The notes under the pieces were generated by a model. It ran no database searches. It was not told the DNA's origin and saw nothing but the letters and a program-made list of their open reading frames with translations. Shown here one piece after another: positions 8,995-64,000 of a DNA stretch of 64,000 bases. Where the stretch lies: assembly GCF_000820845.2 (NCBI RefSeq), contig NZ_CBXV010000001.1, positions 1 through 64,000 of the forward strand, written 5' to 3'. The DNA comes from Pyrinomonas methylaliphatogenes. GTDB lineage: Bacteria > Acidobacteriota > Blastocatellia > Pyrinomonadales > Pyrinomonadaceae. Position 1 is the stretch's first letter. Each line of letters opens with the position of its first letter. The translations under genes and the position numbers were made by a program.

Positions 8995-13158
<4,164 letters not shown>

Positions 13159-13239: not shown

Positions 13240-14022
13240 TCATTTCATCGCAAGATGGAGAGACGAGCCCGAATGTTCGTCCAGCGATGAATCGCCCCAA
13301 GGTGCGAGGCAGCGCCGTAGGTTCACGACCTTACCGATGATCCAAACGGCTGGCGGGTGGACTTCGACTCGGCCTTCGGCGACGCTGACAAGCTCGCTCG
13401 TGATGACCCTCTCCGCAGGCGTCGCGCCGTTTTCGATAAAAGCCACCGGTTCATCCGGCGGGCGTCCATGTTCGATCAATCTCTGCGCGATCTTCCGTCG
13501 TTCGTTGACTCCCATCAGGATGATCAGTGTCTCAACTCGAGCGACGGCGGCCAGATTCAACTCTGCGCCCTCTTGGCGGTGACCTGCGATCACGGCGAAG
13601 GAGGCCGAGATGCCGCGGTATGTGAGCGGGATTCCGGCGAGGCTAGGGAGCGAGAGGGCTGAAGATAGGCCCGGAACCACCTCCACCGCGATGCCATGCG
13701 CATTGAGAAAAGCCCACTCTTCGCCGCCTCTGCCGAAGACGAATGGATCGCCCCCTTTGAGGCGCACGACGACCTTGTTCTCCTTGGCGAGATTCAACAG
13801 AGTCGAGTTGATTCGATCTTGAAAGCGTTGTTCGCCGTGGGATTTGCCGACGTATATCAAGGTCGCCTTGGGAGGGCAGAGTTTGAGGACTTCTGCGGTC
13901 ACGAGACGGTCATAAAGCACGACATCGGCGCGCTCAAGCGCGCGCACGGCTTTGAGCGTCAACAGGTCCGGGTCGCCCGGGCCAGCCCCGATGATGTACA
14001 CCTTACCGCTCATCCTTCTCAT
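13240..14022 (-). CDS. cobA: Uroporphyrinogen-III C-methyltransferase
   Basis: This 260-residue enzyme makes precorrin-2 from uroporphyrinogen III with two S-adenosylmethionine molecules. It is the first committed step to siroheme and cobalamin. The N-terminal VYIIGAGPGDPDLLTLKAVRALERADVVLYDRLV and the later VRLKGGDPFVFGRGGEE and VPGLSSALSLPSLAGIPLTYRG are hallmark SUMT motifs. It lacks the CysG N-terminal dehydrogenase/chelatase part, so another protein must finish siroheme. It is the last gene of the nitrate operon, which makes sense because NirB needs siroheme. The start could also be the ATG nine bases downstream (MSGKVYIIG). Confidence 0.93.
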   Translation of the reverse strand: MRRMSGKVYIIGAGPGDPDLLTLKAVRALERADVVLYDRLVTAEVLKLCPPKATLIYVGKSHGEQRFQDRINSTLLNLAKENKVVVRLKGGDPFVFGRGGEEWAFLNAHGIAVEVVPGLSSALSLPSLAGIPLTYRGISASFAVIAGHRQEGAELNLAAVARVETLIILMGVNERRKIAQRLIEHGRPPDEPVAFIENGATPAERVITSELVSVAEGRVEVHPPAVWIIGKVVNLRRCLAPWGDSSLDEHSGSSLHLAMK

Positions 14023-58971: not shown

Positions 58972-59325
58972 TCAGCGAGTCGTCTGTTTGATCTTGCCTT
59001 CGAGTTCCAGCAGATTGACGAGTTGCTGGACCAGCGGGCGATAGGTTGAGTTCTCCAGATGTTCGACGAATGAGGTGTGGTAACGTCCGGCGCGTAACTG
59101 CTCTTCGATCCAGCGGCCTTCGCGGAGCAAGACCCACAGGTTATGGGTTGCGCGGTTGTGAAAACCACGCGCCCCCTGCGCTTTGAGGCCCGCGATCGAC
59201 GCGCGCTGGCAGGCGGGGCAGGCGCAATCGAGCAGGCGCTTCTTCTCCTGTGGGCTGAGTTCGCGCCCTTTCCACGATCCAAGCGGGGCGACCACGCGCT
59301 CGCCGCTACCGGGCAGTTGAATATG
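58972..59325 (-). pseudogene. C-terminal fragment of a tRNA-guanine transglycosylase-like (TGT/DpdA-type) protein
   Basis: The frame ends at 58972. Its recognisable part reads LSPQEKKRLLDCACPACQRA ... GARGFHNRATHNLWVLLREG ... GRYHTSFVEHLENSTYRPLV. The spacing C-x-C-x2-C with a later histidine in RATHNLWVLLRE is the zinc site of TGT-fold enzymes. Relatives include queuosine TGT and the DNA-modifying DpdA. The catalytic N-terminal barrel is missing. Upstream of about 59325 the frame runs antisense through the integrase remnant, so the gene was cut by a rearrangement there. Which TGT subfamily it came from cannot be decided. Confidence 0.55.
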
Positions 59326-59329
59326 GCCG

Positions 59330-59987
59330 CGCGGTTGCGCCACTTGCTGGAGATGGGCGAGCGGGAAGTTGAAGCGTTCTTGACTCATCTCGCCCTGAAA
59401 GGTTTCCGCGCCATCAGTTCGATTGACGGCCTTATGTAAGTTGAAGCGTTCTTGACGCACCTCGCCCTGAAAGAGCACCTCAGCAGCTCAACAACCAAGC
59501 GCTCTCGGCGCTGCTTCTCTTGTACCGTCACGCTTTTGACCGCGAGCTTGATGCTCTCAGCAACGTGCTTCGCGCGCGCTAGCCAACACGGCTACCCATC
59601 GTTCTGACTCGTGAGGAGGTCAAGACAGTTCTGAGCCGCCTACACGGCGACAAGTGGCCGATGGCGTCGTTGATATATGGTGCAGGGCTACTGGAATGCT
59701 TGCGACTGCGGGTTCAGGAATTGACTTTGCTCGAAACGAGATCACGGTTCGGGGTGGCAAAGGTGGAAAAGACCACATGACGATGTTGTCTGAGTCGGTC
59801 AAAGCGCCGCTCCAGGAGTATCTCCGAAAAGTCAAAGCCATTCACGAAAAAGACCTGCGCGATGGGTGTGGGCGCGTACTTTTGCCTGAGGCCTTGACCG
59901 TAAATATCCGAATGCCTCAACCGAGTGGCGATGGCAGTGGGTATTCCCATCAGCACGTTGTAAGTGAAGGGACTTGTGGGCGAAACC
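59330..59987 (+). pseudogene. Integron-type integrase (IntI-like tyrosine recombinase), frameshifted remnant
   Basis: Pieces of one IntI-like protein follow in order but in changing frames: LEMGEREVEAFLTHLALK (from 59350), a repeat of EAFLTHLAL (59443), NQALSALLLLYRHAFDREL (from about 59494), VLTREEVKTVLSRLHGDKW then PMASLIYGAGLLECLRLRVQ (from 59605), DFARNEITVRGGKGGKDHMT (from 59726), VKAPLQEYLRKVKAIHEKDL (from 59799) and DRKYPNASTEWRWQWVFPSA (from 59898). The last block is the segment typical of integron integrases. The C-terminal catalytic tyrosine part is absent. A 36-nt part is duplicated with a 72-nt offset. It reads toward the cassette, opposite to the usual integron layout. Confidence 0.8.
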
Positions 59988-60103
59988 ATCTAACATGACC
60001 GAGGGCGGTTCAGAGCATGGTGAATGCCATGAAAACAAAGGACTTGACAAACAAGGCGCCGATGCGTATTCTGCCGCCAATTTGGCGTAATCGTATGTTA
60101 GGC
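59988..60103 (+). other. attC-like recombination site 1
   Basis: ATCTAAC at 59988-59994 fits RYYYAAC and GTTAGGC at 60097-60103 fits GTTRRRY. The ends pair beyond the core (CTAACAT with ATGTTAG), and inner GGCGG/CCGCC stretches can form the second box. The site is about 116 bp. A second GTTAGGC at 60123-60129 blurs the right boundary. It directly follows the integrase remnant, so it could instead be a former attI region. Confidence 0.5.
60044..60072 (+). promoter_or_regulatory. Candidate cassette promoter
   Basis: TTGACA at 60044-60049 and TATTCT at 60067-60072 are separated by exactly 17 bases. It lies inside the first attC-like site and reads into the cassette gene at 60161, so it may serve as the cassette promoter. 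Confidence 0.5.
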
Positions 60104-60160: not shown

Positions 60161-60589
60161 ATGGTACTGGCTCCTGACGATCCAAAACCCGCTCGAATAA
60201 CGATACGTGAGGCGTATACAAAGATTAGGCAGTGGTTGCAAGTCAACGTAGCTCAATTTGAGGAAAGTCCTCCCGAAGAGGTGAAAGCAGGCGGTATCAC
60301 AATCGTCCGAGATCTTGCTTCTCACGCCAAAGCTTGTGTTGATTTGGTAAAGAACCTACCGGAAGAAAAAGAGCTTTCAGATCTAGAAATTAGGGCAGTG
60401 CTGGCAGAGGTTATTGCAGGGAAACTCGAGTGGGCTTACCACCAATCAGATGGTTCCTACAAAATGGCAGCCTATGCACACGCGGCATTGAAGCAAGCAG
60501 GATTGCCGCCGTTTCTTTCGCAGACAGAAAAAGATAAACTTAAGACCAGCAATCTCTATTTTTACCTTTCTCCGCACTTGAGAGAGTGA
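60161..60589 (+). CDS. Integron cassette protein, unknown function
   Basis: This 142-residue protein, starting at ATG 60161, has a perfect AAGGAGGT ribosome-binding site seven bases ahead. I recognise no family. It is probably mostly helical and soluble (ARITIREAYTKIRQWLQVNVAQFEE, VKAGGITIVRDLASHAKACVDLVKNL, SDLEIRAVLAEVIAGKLEWAYHQ, YKMAAYAHAALKQAGLPPF), with no signal peptide or membrane part. Its base composition is visibly AT-richer than the host genes, a sign of transfer. It lies alone between two attC-like sites, just as a gene cassette does. Cassette genes are often accessory, including defence functions, but nothing in this sequence proves that. Confidence 0.8.
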   Translation: MVLAPDDPKPARITIREAYTKIRQWLQVNVAQFEESPPEEVKAGGITIVRDLASHAKACVDLVKNLPEEKELSDLEIRAVLAEVIAGKLEWAYHQSDGSYKMAAYAHAALKQAGLPPFLSQTEKDKLKTSNLYFYLSPHLRE

Positions 60590-60724: not shown

Positions 60725-61876
60725 GTGAATCGATCGGTGAAACTTCGATCCGACGGTGCAGAGCTCCGTGACCGAATTATCCGATCTCTCCGAGCGCAAG
60801 GTTTCCGAGTTCGCGACGGAGCCATCCTACCTCCGAAGGAGCTGTCCAAGGAGAGAATCCGCGAGCTTCACAAGACCGCCGTTGAGCATCGGATCGAGCG
60901 GGCTCGGGACAGTCTATTTCGAGCAGAGAAGGATCTCCTGCGCTACATCGCATCGGGACACGAGGTTGTTCCTTCGCGGATTTCTCCCCGCTTGGTGGAG
61001 GTGCTGCCAGGCTCGGAGGAAGAACTTCTATTCCGCTATGCAAGTCTACATTGGAGTATTCCGGTCTCGTCGGGTTACGGACGCCGTTTGCGGTTCCTTG
61101 TCCTTGACGATCACAATGGAAAGTTGATCGGTCTGATCGGATTGGGTGATCCGGTCTTTAGTCTTCAGCCACGGGATGCATGGATCGGATGGACGTCTTC
61201 CGAACGTAAGAAGCGCTTGGCGAACGTAATGGATGCCTTCGTGTTGGGAGCGGTGCCACCCTACTCTTTTCTCTTGTGCGGAAAGCTCGTGGCGATGCTG
61301 GCCGCAAGCGACACGGTCCGCCGTGCATTCAGAAGAAAGTACGGAGGCGTACGTTCTGTCATCCGACGCAAGGTGCATGATGGCCGTCTGGCGCTGATCA
61401 CGACGACGTCGGCTCTTGGTCGGTCCTCTGTCTATAACAGGCTACGTCTCGGGGATAGACTTCTCTATCAGAGCGTGGGCTTCACCAAGGGCTTCGGTGA
61501 ATTTCACTTTTCCAACGGCCTATACGGAGCCATCACCGAGTTTGTAGAGAAACACTGTGAGCCGACGGCGAAACAAGAACGCTGGGGGGTCGGCTTCCGC
61601 AATCGCCGGGAAGTAATTCGAAAATGCCTTCGCGCGCTTGGGCTGTCAAGCGACTGGCTTTACCACGGGATCAAACGGGAAGTTTTTGTCATCCCGCTCG
61701 CGCGCAATTGCCGGGAGTTTCTTCGGGGAGAGCACTCTCGTTTGCAGTGGTATCATCATTCCGAAGCCCAGATTTTTGAATACTTCAGGGATCGGTGGAT
61801 GCTGCCGAGGGCAGGCCGTGATCAGAGATACCGCACTTTCGAGGCGGAGAGCTATCGACTATGGAGGGCGCCATGA
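60725..61876 (+). CDS. DUF4338 (Druantia DruA-like) protein
   Basis: This 383-residue protein starts with GTG 60725. It matches what I recall of the DUF4338 family, which includes DruA of the Druantia phage-defence system. Visible blocks are RFLVLDDHNGKLIGLIGLGDPVF (residues 123-145), DAWIGWTSSERKKRLANVMD (151-170), PPYSFLLCGKLVAML (178-192), ALITTTSALGRSSVYNRL (223-240), REVFVIPLARNCREFLRGE (318-336) and the end RWMLPRAGRD (357-366). The biochemical role of DUF4338 is not known to me. Its stop overlaps the NurA start by ATGA, and a HerA gene follows. It begins 42 bases after the cassette attC. Confidence 0.7.
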   Translation: MNRSVKLRSDGAELRDRIIRSLRAQGFRVRDGAILPPKELSKERIRELHKTAVEHRIERARDSLFRAEKDLLRYIASGHEVVPSRISPRLVEVLPGSEEELLFRYASLHWSIPVSSGYGRRLRFLVLDDHNGKLIGLIGLGDPVFSLQPRDAWIGWTSSERKKRLANVMDAFVLGAVPPYSFLLCGKLVAMLAASDTVRRAFRRKYGGVRSVIRRKVHDGRLALITTTSALGRSSVYNRLRLGDRLLYQSVGFTKGFGEFHFSNGLYGAITEFVEKHCEPTAKQERWGVGFRNRREVIRKCLRALGLSSDWLYHGIKREVFVIPLARNCREFLRGEHSRLQWYHHSEAQIFEYFRDRWMLPRAGRDQRYRTFEAESYRLWRAP

Positions 61877-63051
61877 CGGCAGGTGGTGAATTCCCTGACC
61901 AGACTCCGTTTGCTGATCTGCCAGCTGCCCTCGTCGAAGAGGTGCTGAACCAGACGGCGACGGTGGCGGATGGCCTGCTTGCTTCGTTTCAGAAGATCAG
62001 AGAGGATCGCAATGCGCTACGCAAGAAGCTTGAGGAGTCTGGCCTTGTTATCACGGAATCCTCCCTCGGGTATCCGCCGCTGCCGACGACATGCGCAACC
62101 GACGGTTCCTACGCGATCGACCGACTTCTCACTATTGACTTGGCCGCGGCGGCAGCGGTGGCCGTGGAAGGTCTCACGCCGCCCTCAGAGAAACGGCATT
62201 GGGAACTTCCCCATCACAAGACCTTCATAGCGGCTGAGCCGCACCTCGAAGACACAGCCACCGTTCTCCGTGCAGTCATGCTCGGGGAGGAGCTTCTTTT
62301 GTCCACCAGTGCGCCGCATGACGTTGTGATGATCGACGGAACGCTAACGCTGCCTATCATCTACTTTAATCAGGCACTCAATAAAGTACTCGATGCGAAG
62401 GAACTTCGTTGTTCCGCGGAGTTCCTCGAGCGCTGCGACAAGTACCTGACCGCCTACCTCGAGCTTTTGCGCTCGGAGCGTTCGGACAAGCATTACATCG
62501 CCCTACCAAAGTACTCGACGCGCCGTGAGATCGGCACACGGCTCGGGTGGCCGACGGGCCACGACGACCGTGGGATGCTGACGCTCTTGCTCGACCCGGG
62601 CGAGTTCACGACGCCGGTCGAGCTTGAGCACCCGCGCGACAGCGAAGGCCGGGTCACTTGGCATTTGAATACTGGGAATCTCCCAAACGAGAGCAGGAAG
62701 AAGGTCCACGATCTCGCGAACGAGATCGTGTTCGCTCTTCAGACGGTGAAGGTGTTCTACTACAAGCCGCACGATTGGCTTCCAGCGCTGCGGGTCGAGG
62801 TCGCCGCTAGCGTGGCGTCGAATAAGCATCGGCTGGCGACAGTCGTCCAGGGGCTGAAGCATCAGTGCGCAACACCGTCCATGCTCGAGCCCTACCCGAT
62901 CTACCTGGCTGACCGCACCGCGAAGGCGCTTGCGCGGGCCATCCCTGCCTTTCGCCAGGTGACCACCCAGCAGGTGTCGGAGCGTTACAACGGCGACATC
63001 GGCGAGGTCTTCTTTGCCTTACACGGCTATCGGAGTGAGAGCGGGAGATAA
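61873..63051 (+). CDS. nurA: NurA-type nuclease
   Basis: About 392 residues from ATG 61873, preceded by GGAGGGC and overlapping the upstream stop by ATGA. The NurA nuclease acids are in CATDGSYAID (D77) and DVVMIDGTLTLP (D155). A later LRSERSDKHYIALPKYSTR segment and the C-terminal CATPSMLEPYPIYLADRTAKALARAI complete the RNase-H-like NurA pattern. In archaea NurA resects DNA ends together with the HerA ATPase. Here the next gene is HerA-like, so the two should form one complex. The pairing with DUF4338 suggests a defence use, not housekeeping repair. Confidence 0.8.
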   Translation: MTAGGEFPDQTPFADLPAALVEEVLNQTATVADGLLASFQKIREDRNALRKKLEESGLVITESSLGYPPLPTTCATDGSYAIDRLLTIDLAAAAAVAVEGLTPPSEKRHWELPHHKTFIAAEPHLEDTATVLRAVMLGEELLLSTSAPHDVVMIDGTLTLPIIYFNQALNKVLDAKELRCSAEFLERCDKYLTAYLELLRSERSDKHYIALPKYSTRREIGTRLGWPTGHDDRGMLTLLLDPGEFTTPVELEHPRDSEGRVTWHLNTGNLPNESRKKVHDLANEIVFALQTVKVFYYKPHDWLPALRVEVAASVASNKHRLATVVQGLKHQCATPSMLEPYPIYLADRTAKALARAIPAFRQVTTQQVSERYNGDIGEVFFALHGYRSESGR

Positions 63052-63054
63052 GCC

Positions 63055-64000
63055 ATGACGAACTACCGCAAGAATCTCGATCAGATAGTGGACGAGACCG
63101 AACGGCTTGGCGTCGTGGGCTCGCCCTCTTCGACCGCCCAACTCGCTATTGACATCCTCGGTCCGGCTGCCACGCGTAAGCTGGTCGGAGAACTCGCGCT
63201 GTTTCGGTTCACTCAGGACACGAGCCCACACTACGCCCTCGGACAGATTACCGAAGTGCAGCTCCGCAATATCTGGCACGAGGATCCAACGATGCGCAGC
63301 CTGATCCGCCAGCGCGGGCGTGTGGACGCGGTCAGCGAGCGCCAGGACACGCACCTCGGCCAGATGGTGATCAGCGCGGTCTTTCGCCAGGGCGGACCTG
63401 CCGGATACGAGCCGAGCATTCTGGGCACCGTGCCGGCCACAGGCACGCCGATCCATCTCGTGACCGATGATGTCCTAGATGAACTCTTGCACCCCTACAG
63501 GGATCAGATCTTCTACCTCGGCCACGTCTACGGCTCAAAACCGAAGCTGCCGCTCTGGTTCAAGCACTTCGACAGCGGGCCGGATGGCGCCGGCGAGGCC
63601 TACCACCTCGGCATCTTCGGCAAGACCGGCTCGGGCAAGTCGGTGCTGGCCAAAATGATCCTGCTAGCCTACGCGCGCTACCCGAAGATGGCGCTGCTCG
63701 TGATCGACCCGCAGGGAGAATTCGCGAGGGACATGCGCAAGGGAGGGAAGAGCGGCGAATTCGCCCTTCCAGTGGGTGACGTGGTGAGGAAGCTCGGCAA
63801 GCACCCGGTGGTGCTCACGGTGCGAAATCTGATTCTCGACCGCTGGGAGCTTTTCGAGCAAATCCTGTTCGAGTCGCAATTCTTCGAGCGGTTGACCGTG
63901 CCTAGAGGCGAGAACCGTGAACTAGCCTGTGGCGTGCTGGCCGACAAGCTACAGAAAGCCGGGGTCAAGCTCGCCGATCTGCATGAACGCAAGTCCTTCG
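63055..64000 (+). CDS. herA: HerA-like ATPase, cut by the window end
   Basis: The frame from ATG 63055, with GGGAG about eight bases ahead, is open for 315 codons to the window end. An N-terminal beta-rich part (YALGQITEVQLRNIWHEDPT ... SILGTVPATGTPIHLVTDDVL) looks like the HAS-barrel of HerA. The FtsK/HerA ATPase domain follows with Walker A FGKTGSGKS (residues 188-196) and Walker B ALLVIDPQGEF (D218, E222). HerA forms a hexameric DNA pump that loads onto NurA. It starts four bases after the nurA stop. The C-terminal half is outside the window. Confidence 0.85.
   Translation, partial: MTNYRKNLDQIVDETERLGVVGSPSSTAQLAIDILGPAATRKLVGELALFRFTQDTSPHYALGQITEVQLRNIWHEDPTMRSLIRQRGRVDAVSERQDTHLGQMVISAVFRQGGPAGYEPSILGTVPATGTPIHLVTDDVLDELLHPYRDQIFYLGHVYGSKPKLPLWFKHFDSGPDGAGEAYHLGIFGKTGSGKSVLAKMILLAYARYPKMALLVIDPQGEFARDMRKGGKSGEFALPVGDVVRKLGKHPVVLTVRNLILDRWELFEQILFESQFFERLTVPRGENRELACGVLADKLQKAGVKLADLHERKSF

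What the first reader, a model, noticed from the sequence alone, without database searches (positions are those of the whole stretch)
60725..64000. Candidate defence operon: DUF4338 (DruA-like) - NurA - HerA
Three genes are packed with an ATGA overlap and a 3-nt gap: a DUF4338 protein, a NurA-type nuclease with both acid motifs, and a HerA-type ATPase with intact Walker motifs. DUF4338 is the DruA family of Druantia, yet the Druantia helicase DruE is not adjacent, and the partners here are an end-resection pair. I know of no named system with exactly this trio. The module sits in an island with a toxin-antitoxin wreck, an integron remnant and a TGT/DpdA-like fragment, a typical defence-island setting.
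Basis: partly seen in the sequence, partly recalled or inferred. Interest (0 to 1): 0.82.

Follow-up and report, generated by a model that had tools for sequence, protein, structure and literature searches.

The report
A recurrent DruA-NurA-HerA three-gene module
A bacterium carries a tightly packed trio of genes (a relative of a phage DNA-modifying enzyme, a DNA-chewing nuclease and its DNA-pumping motor) that turns up together in at least a dozen phyla, which suggests a widespread, still unnamed defence system against foreign DNA.

Summary
DruA (PF14236, E 1e-123), NurA and HerA lie in one operon at 60725-64854; HerA ends outside the window and no DruB-E follows. The trio is not a one-off. 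Of 53 loci found with the NurA sequence, 51 have DruA beside NurA-HerA (of the other two, one contig starts inside nurA and one genome lacks DruA), in at least 12 bacterial phyla and one archaeon. Seen from DruA, 19 of 29 full-length DruA genes in sampled genomes of four phyla sit beside a NurA-HerA pair, including divergent pairs and reversed order; 5 are in Druantia-like loci. Druantia DruA is nested among trio DruAs in the tree. AlphaFold models: NurA is a full NurA fold (Z 22); DruA is a GNAT fold. A bridging group of short DUF4338 proteins links DruA to Mu Mom, a DNA-base-modifying enzyme (profile E 2e-11). However, the window's DruA has lost most Mom active-site residues, so its chemistry is open. 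Best reading: a compact restriction-like defence module, HerA-NurA degrading DNA and DruA supplying modification or licensing. Defence itself is inferred; a pooled neighbour test showed no clear defence-island enrichment. I found no description in the held literature.

The parts
60725..61876 (+). druA (DUF4338, PF14236), 383 aa; GNAT-fold protein distantly related to phage Mu Mom
   Evidence: Pfam E 1.3e-123; AF2 model pLDDT 91.9; GNAT/Mom structural matches; 27 invariant residues in 47 homologues
61873..63051 (+). nurA, RNase H-like nuclease; D81, E144, D159 conserved (numbering from the ATG at 61861)
   Evidence: PF09376 E 7.5e-6, 47/50 aligned sequences hit; AF2 model pLDDT 92.1 matches NurA structures at Z 22; D81 50/50, E144 49/50, D159 50/50
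63055..64000 (+). herA, DNA-translocase ATPase; continues to 64854 outside the window (599 aa)
   Evidence: DUF87 E 1.8e-10, Walker A and B intact

Best explanation
The three genes are one functional unit, a compact module that acts on DNA and most likely defends against foreign DNA. By analogy with solved HerA-NurA complexes, HerA forms a hexameric pump on double-stranded DNA and feeds it to a NurA dimer, which destroys both strands. DruA is a GNAT-fold protein that shares ancestry with Mom, the phage Mu enzyme that puts a bulky group on adenine. Its likely job is to tell self from non-self: either it modifies bases in host DNA so that HerA-NurA spares it (a restriction-modification-like logic, parallel to Tdp systems, where a modification protein is paired with a HerA-like and a NurA-like protein), or it marks target DNA for the nuclease. 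Shown here: gene order, recurrence, folds, intact nuclease and ATPase motifs, and the DruA-to-Mom relationship through a bridging family. Inferred: complex formation, DNA as DruA's substrate, self-marking, and the anti-phage role.
For: 51 of 53 NurA-found loci carry DruA next to NurA-HerA, mostly with overlapping or abutting genes; in 21 of 23 host genomes checked the genome's only DruA is the one in the trio. DruA-centred survey of four phyla: 19 of 29 full-length DruA adjoin NurA/HerA, with several divergent NurA-HerA types and both orders DruA-NurA-HerA and NurA-HerA-DruA. NurA model matches NurA of the T. kodakarensis HerA-NurA complex (Z 22.1, 308 residues) and TdpB of TdpAB (Z 14.0). DruA model's best VIA-align row is Mom (8bv8, Z 9.5, 175 residues), tied with other GNATs. 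Short DUF4338 profile against Mom profile: probability 97%, E 2.3e-11; short against long DruA: E 4.3e-11; 8 of 25 short DUF4338 proteins hit the Pfam Mom family; the short forms themselves occur with the same NurA-HerA in L155/L156. T. kodakarensis HerA-NurA degrades both strands of dsDNA (PMC12977600). Mom-based modification coupled to endonuclease domains is predicted in jumbo phages (PMC7824862).
Against: The five residues invariant or nearly so in Mom (H58, Y59, R111, D149, Y159) are kept in short DUF4338 proteins but mostly not in the window's type of DruA: only the last Tyr is invariant (Y237), H109 is present in 28 of 47, and the Arg and Asp positions are changed. Long DruA against Mom directly is not significant. 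Neighbouring genes show no clear excess of known defence genes over more distant genes. No modification, binding or phage data exist.
Confidence: 0.45

Rival explanations
1. The trio is a defence module, but DruA is not a DNA modifier. It is a GNAT-fold sensor or acyltransferase acting on a protein or nucleotide, which switches HerA-NurA on when a phage is detected.
For: Mom active-site residues are mostly lost in long DruA while a different polar set is invariant (R150, D151, K187, T227, S229, S234, S235, Y237, R239, R318). DruA structural matches include many protein and small-molecule GNATs at nearly the same Z. HerA pairs with other effectors in known defence systems (cited in PMC12977600). 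DUF4338 is described as a GNAT domain fused to DndF, with an effector role on proteins proposed (PMC10853773).
Against: The nearest characterised relatives through the bridging family are DNA-base modifiers; the recurrent partners are DNA enzymes.
Confidence: 0.3
2. The trio is a DNA-repair or DNA-processing module (double-strand-break end handling) with DruA as an accessory protein, not a defence system.
For: NurA-HerA was described as an end-resection pair in archaea (PMC5715905, PMC4351679); several hosts carry names of thermophilic groups.
Against: Very patchy distribution: this NurA is absent from 395 of 396 Acidobacteriota genomes searched, and the tree mixes phyla, both unlike a housekeeping repair system. 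The T. kodakarensis complex cannot make 3' overhangs and defence is suggested instead (PMC12977600). DruA is shared with Druantia.
Confidence: 0.12
3. The module belongs to mobile elements (a transposon or integrative element) and serves the element, for example by excluding competitors or processing its own DNA, rather than the host.
For: Short DUF4338 genes are often multicopy, and two are fused to Tn5-type transposases; TniA/B/Q-like genes lie beside one divergent trio (L222, read by eye); an integrase fragment lies nearby in the window.
Against: Most trio loci have no recurrent transposase or integrase neighbour: the flanks differ from locus to locus; no tRNA and no clear terminal repeats bracket the window's copy.
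Confidence: 0.1
4. The genes lie together by chance.
For: None found.
Against: Recurrence in 51 of 53 and 19 of 29 loci across phyla.
Confidence: 0.01

Closest known systems
Druantia type I (DruA-DruB-DruC-DruD-DruE)
   Same: DruA homologue at 40-42% identity; real Druantia loci were recovered on plasmids with the window's DruA as query.
   Different: No DruB, C, D or E; a NurA nuclease and a HerA motor take their place. In the tree Druantia DruAs form one branch nested with trio DruAs.
TdpABC (phosphorothioate-linked HerA/NurA-like system of Thermus)
   Same: A HerA-like motor with a NurA-like nuclease (TdpB Z 14 to this NurA), plus a third gene for DNA modification (the third gene is from memory).
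   Different: The third protein here is a GNAT-fold DruA; NurA is closer to archaeal NurA (Z 22) than to TdpB.
HerA-SIR2 and HerA-DUF4297 anti-phage systems
   Same: HerA-type ATPase paired with an effector nuclease in a small operon.
   Different: Effector is NurA, and a third gene, DruA, is constant. PADLOC and NCBIfam HerA models match only weakly.
Archaeal/bacterial HerA-NurA (T. kodakarensis, S. solfataricus, D. radiodurans)
   Same: NurA fold, active-site acids and HerA motifs.
   Different: Constant DruA partner; patchy distribution.
Phage Mu Mom (PF25680)
   Same: GNAT fold; bridged to DruA by short DUF4338 proteins.
   Different: Long DruA lacks most Mom key residues and has an N-terminal helical region and a C-terminal extension.
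BREX-related capture (BRC) systems (GNAT, TGT, HerA/FtsK, PglZ and others)
   Same: Published precedent for a GNAT proposed as DNA modifier beside a HerA/FtsK motor (PMC12839542).
   Different: Seven-part system with PglZ and BrxC-like proteins; no further gene recurs with the trio.

Membership tests
DruA / DUF4338 (PF14236) | Full-length match to the Pfam family above its cut-off | tested here: met
   412 bits against a cut-off of 27, profile positions 2-297 of 297
Druantia type I | DruE helicase in the operon | tested here: not met
   No DruE homologue in the 20 kb around the trio at E 1e-3
Druantia type I | DruB, DruC and DruD genes | tested here: not met
   No homologue of DruB/C/D of L061/L063; these proteins vary greatly, so remote ones could be missed
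NurA | NurA fold with metal-binding acids | tested here: met
   Z 22.1 to TkNurA, 21.9 to SsoNurA; D81, E144, D159 conserved in at least 49 of 50
HerA | HerA/FtsK ATPase core with Walker A and B | tested here: met
   DUF87 E 1.8e-10; GKTGSGKS and LVVIDE
HerA-NurA complex | Physical hexamer-dimer complex degrading dsDNA | not testable with these tools
   Only gene adjacency and folds could be tested
Mom family (PF25680) | Direct sequence match to the Mom profile | tested here: not met
   Window DruA shows no PF25680 match in a scan at E 10; hhalign to the Mom alignment not significant
Mom family (PF25680) | Conserved Mom residues H58, Y59, R111, D149, Y159 | tested here: not met
   Only the Tyr equivalent is invariant; His in 28/47; Arg and Asp positions changed
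Mom family (PF25680) | Homology through intermediates and shared GNAT fold | tested here: met
   Short DUF4338 against Mom E 2.3e-11, against long DruA E 4.3e-11; fold match Z 9.5, tied with other GNATs
TdpABC | TdpC-type phosphorothioation enzyme | not tested
   No TdpC sequence was at hand; no third gene other than DruA is constant
Known PADLOC defence system | All core genes hit PADLOC models | tested here: not met
   NurA hits no PADLOC model at E 1; DruA and HerA do, HerA only weakly
Defence-island gene | Enriched near known defence genes | tested here: inconclusive
   Pooled near and far neighbours show no clear difference; the near hits shown are mostly UvrD-like helicases

The most novel reading that the evidence does not exclude
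DruA-NurA-HerA is a widespread, unnamed restriction-modification-like system in which a Mom-derived GNAT enzyme marks host DNA with a base modification and a HerA-NurA machine destroys unmarked DNA. Druantia type I arose when this DruA was recruited to a different helicase set, so DruA would be a DNA-modifying enzyme there too.
Probability: 0.28. Interest if true: 0.85.

Novelty: new variant of a known kind. Interest (0 to 1): 0.72.

Why it matters
DruA is named after Druantia and its function is, as far as I know, undescribed. These results say its commoner partner, at least in the genomes sampled, is a NurA-HerA nuclease-motor pair, and that its family shares ancestry with a DNA-base-modifying enzyme. 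That turns an unexplained protein into a testable enzyme hypothesis, adds a recurrent three-gene module to the HerA-nuclease defences, and bears on the open question of what bacterial NurA-HerA pairs do.

Tried and rejected
Direct hhalign of long DruA with Mom gave nothing significant; the link was found only through short DUF4338 proteins. PDB sequence searches with DruA and NurA profiles found no true relatives, so structure models were needed. A scan of viral contigs with this NurA found nothing; phages hold only distant DUF4338 proteins. The idea that the downstream PRTase and SLOG-like genes belong to the module was dropped: they occur in none of the other trio loci. The TGT fragment and the 142-aa ORF at 60161-60589 were dropped for the same reason. 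Defence-island enrichment: inconclusive. No tRNA and no plausible flanking repeats mark an integration site. VIA-align rows for DruA are close together (Z 8-9.5), so Mom as top row alone was not taken as proof.

Full report
WHAT IS THERE. The window ends inside herA. Read in the host genome (3.79 Mb, 16 contigs; I take it to be an acidobacterium related to Pyrinomonas, which is my inference from gene content, not a tool result), the operon is druA 60725-61876, nurA 61873-63051 and herA 63055-64854. DruA is a full-length PF14236 match (E 1.3e-123); NurA passes the Pfam cut-off modestly (E 7.5e-6); HerA has DUF87 and intact Walker motifs. After HerA come a decayed HerA C-terminal fragment (about 40% identical), a ComF/PsyrT-like phosphoribosyltransferase and a SLOG-like protein that overlap by ATGA, then ordinary genes. 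No DruB-E homologue is present in these 20 kb.

RECURRENCE, SEEN FROM NurA. The same NurA type is absent from all other 395 genomes sampled in the host's phylum; the host genome itself has a second copy whose N-terminal part is missing behind a Mutator-type transposase, beside a 70%-identical HerA. In one-genome-per-species data a NurA search gave 53 loci; 51 have DruA next to NurA-HerA, usually overlapping or abutting. Of the two exceptions, L045 begins inside nurA and L055 (an archaeon) has no DruA in its genome. The hosts span Acidobacteriota, Pseudomonadota, Chloroflexota, Gemmatimonadota, Planctomycetota, Bacillota, Deinococcota, Thermomicrobiota, Thermodesulfobacteriota, Myxococcota, Actinomycetota, Armatimonadota and Binatota, and one Archaeoglobaceae genome (many are metagenome bins, so single assignments may be wrong). 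The flanks are not shared, so the three genes form a closed unit. Variants: NurA-HerA-DruA order (L048), a large ATPase-like gene inserted between DruA and NurA (L036, L041), a UvrD-like helicase upstream in five loci.

RECURRENCE, SEEN FROM DruA. PF14236 was searched in about 300-400 genomes each of four phyla, and the neighbours of full-length hits (over 200 bits, seed genomes left out) were classified. Chloroflexota: 9 of 13 with NurA/HerA, 2 with DruE. Bacillota: 7 of 11, 1 Druantia-like. Pseudomonadota: 2 of 3, 1 Druantia. The window's own phylum: 1 of 2, 1 Druantia. Sum: 19 of 29 with NurA/HerA, 5 Druantia-like, 4 without either, 1 at a contig end. The phylum names of the first three are those of the seed genomes' records. 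The NurA-HerA partners include several divergent types (for instance L158 NurA PF09376 E 1.6e-12; those of L159, L161 and L223 recognised as NurA-like by motif only). DruA has therefore been kept with, or re-joined to, different NurA-HerA pairs.

DruA TREE. In a maximum-likelihood tree of 73 rows, Druantia DruAs form a supported branch that also holds one divergent trio (L159) and groups with one of two trio clades (98/99). With short DUF4338 proteins as outgroup, trio DruAs are paraphyletic to Druantia. Long branches and the long distance to the outgroup make the root uncertain.

FOLDS. NurA model (pLDDT 92.1): Z 22.1 to NurA of the T. kodakarensis HerA-NurA complex, 21.9 to S. solfataricus NurA, 14.0 to TdpB; D81, E144 and D159 are conserved (their role as the metal-binding acids is inferred from spacing and position). 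DruA model (pLDDT 91.9): GNAT fold over residues 82-345; the first row is phage Mu Mom (Z 9.5, 175 residues, 3.9 A), tied with ordinary GNATs.

DruA AND Mom. A class of short DUF4338 proteins (about 300 aa) aligns with an 11-member Mom alignment at 97% probability, E 2.3e-11, and with long DruA at E 4.3e-11; 8 of 25 also hit the Pfam Mom family. The structural alignment ends at DruA 336 / Mom 232, the same register as the weak direct hhalign match of long DruA to Mom. Residues invariant or nearly so in Mom (H58, Y59, R111, D149, Y159), which agree with functional residues I recall from published Mom mutagenesis (from memory; that paper is not held), are kept in short DUF4338 proteins (H 25/25, Y 23/25, R 25/25, D or E 22/25, Y 24/25), but in long DruA only the last Tyr is invariant. 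Short DUF4338 proteins with the same NurA-HerA exist (L155, L156; Q at the Asp position). So common ancestry with a DNA modifier is well supported, and identical chemistry is not.

MECHANISM. The T. kodakarensis HerA-NurA complex pumps dsDNA into NurA and cuts both strands, and its authors now favour a defence role (PMC12977600). A Mom-related GNAT as third, constant gene suggests a modification component, as in Tdp systems (from memory) and as predicted for Mom-endonuclease fusions in jumbo phages (PMC7824862) and GNAT-HerA/FtsK combinations in BRC systems (PMC12839542). The rival that DruA is a GNAT sensor or effector (PMC10853773 proposes effector roles for DUF4338 GNATs in DndF) is not excluded.

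NOVELTY. PADLOC has DruA and HerA models but none that hits this NurA. Searches of the held literature found no paper describing the trio; the library lacks most subscription journals, so prior mention cannot be excluded. HerA plus nuclease is a known kind of defence; the constant DruA, the breadth of occurrence and the Mom link are what is new.

LIMITS. All evidence is sequence and predicted structure. The neighbour test for defence islands was inconclusive. Gene calls in fetched loci are ORFs, not annotations. The DruA-centred counts use short flanks for some loci.

Noticed in passing
L002:9353-10425 (host contig C1, 65353-66425, just beyond the window): A ComF-like phosphoribosyltransferase (PADLOC PsyrT E 3e-22) overlaps by ATGA with a SLOG-like protein: a small PsyrTA/ShosTA-like toxin-antitoxin candidate without the helicase part of PsyrT.
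   Followed up: partly
L006:7823-12538 (host contig C2, about 435.8-440.5 kb): Second NurA-HerA pair in the same genome: NurA lacks its N-terminal part behind a Mutator-type transposase, HerA is intact and 70% identical, followed by a NotI-type endonuclease (PF12183) and a D12 adenine methyltransferase.
   Followed up: partly
L006:3802-5232: An IscB-like protein (RRXRR plus HNH domains) lies upstream of that second locus.
   Followed up: no
L128, L129, L143 and similar loci: Short DUF4338 (Mom-like) domains are multicopy in some genomes, and two of 25 are fused to Tn5-type transposases (a third carries another transposase-like C-terminus): possible transposons carrying their own DNA modifier.
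   Followed up: partly
L222:3622-11742: A divergent DruA-NurA-HerA trio (Pseudomonadota search) lies directly beside genes that look like TniA, TniB and TniQ, as if carried by a Tn5053/Tn402-like element (read by eye).
   Followed up: no
L036 and L041, between DruA and NurA; L064:8036-10072: A roughly 1050-aa sacsin/HSP90-like ATPase (by eye) is inserted in two trio loci, and a HATPase_c_3 protein follows a DruA-less NurA-HerA pair on a Rhizobium plasmid.
   Followed up: no
window 59366-59473 and L002:10414-10509, 12829-12927, 13359-13526: Short direct repeats of 30-36 nt spaced 65-72 nt, of several different sequences, some palindromic: possible attC-like or CRISPR-like remnants around the island.
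   Followed up: no
window 58972-59478 and 59654-59998: C-terminal TGT-like fragment (E 4e-4) and integron-integrase fragment (E 5e-15): debris of other mobile or defence genes.
   Followed up: partly
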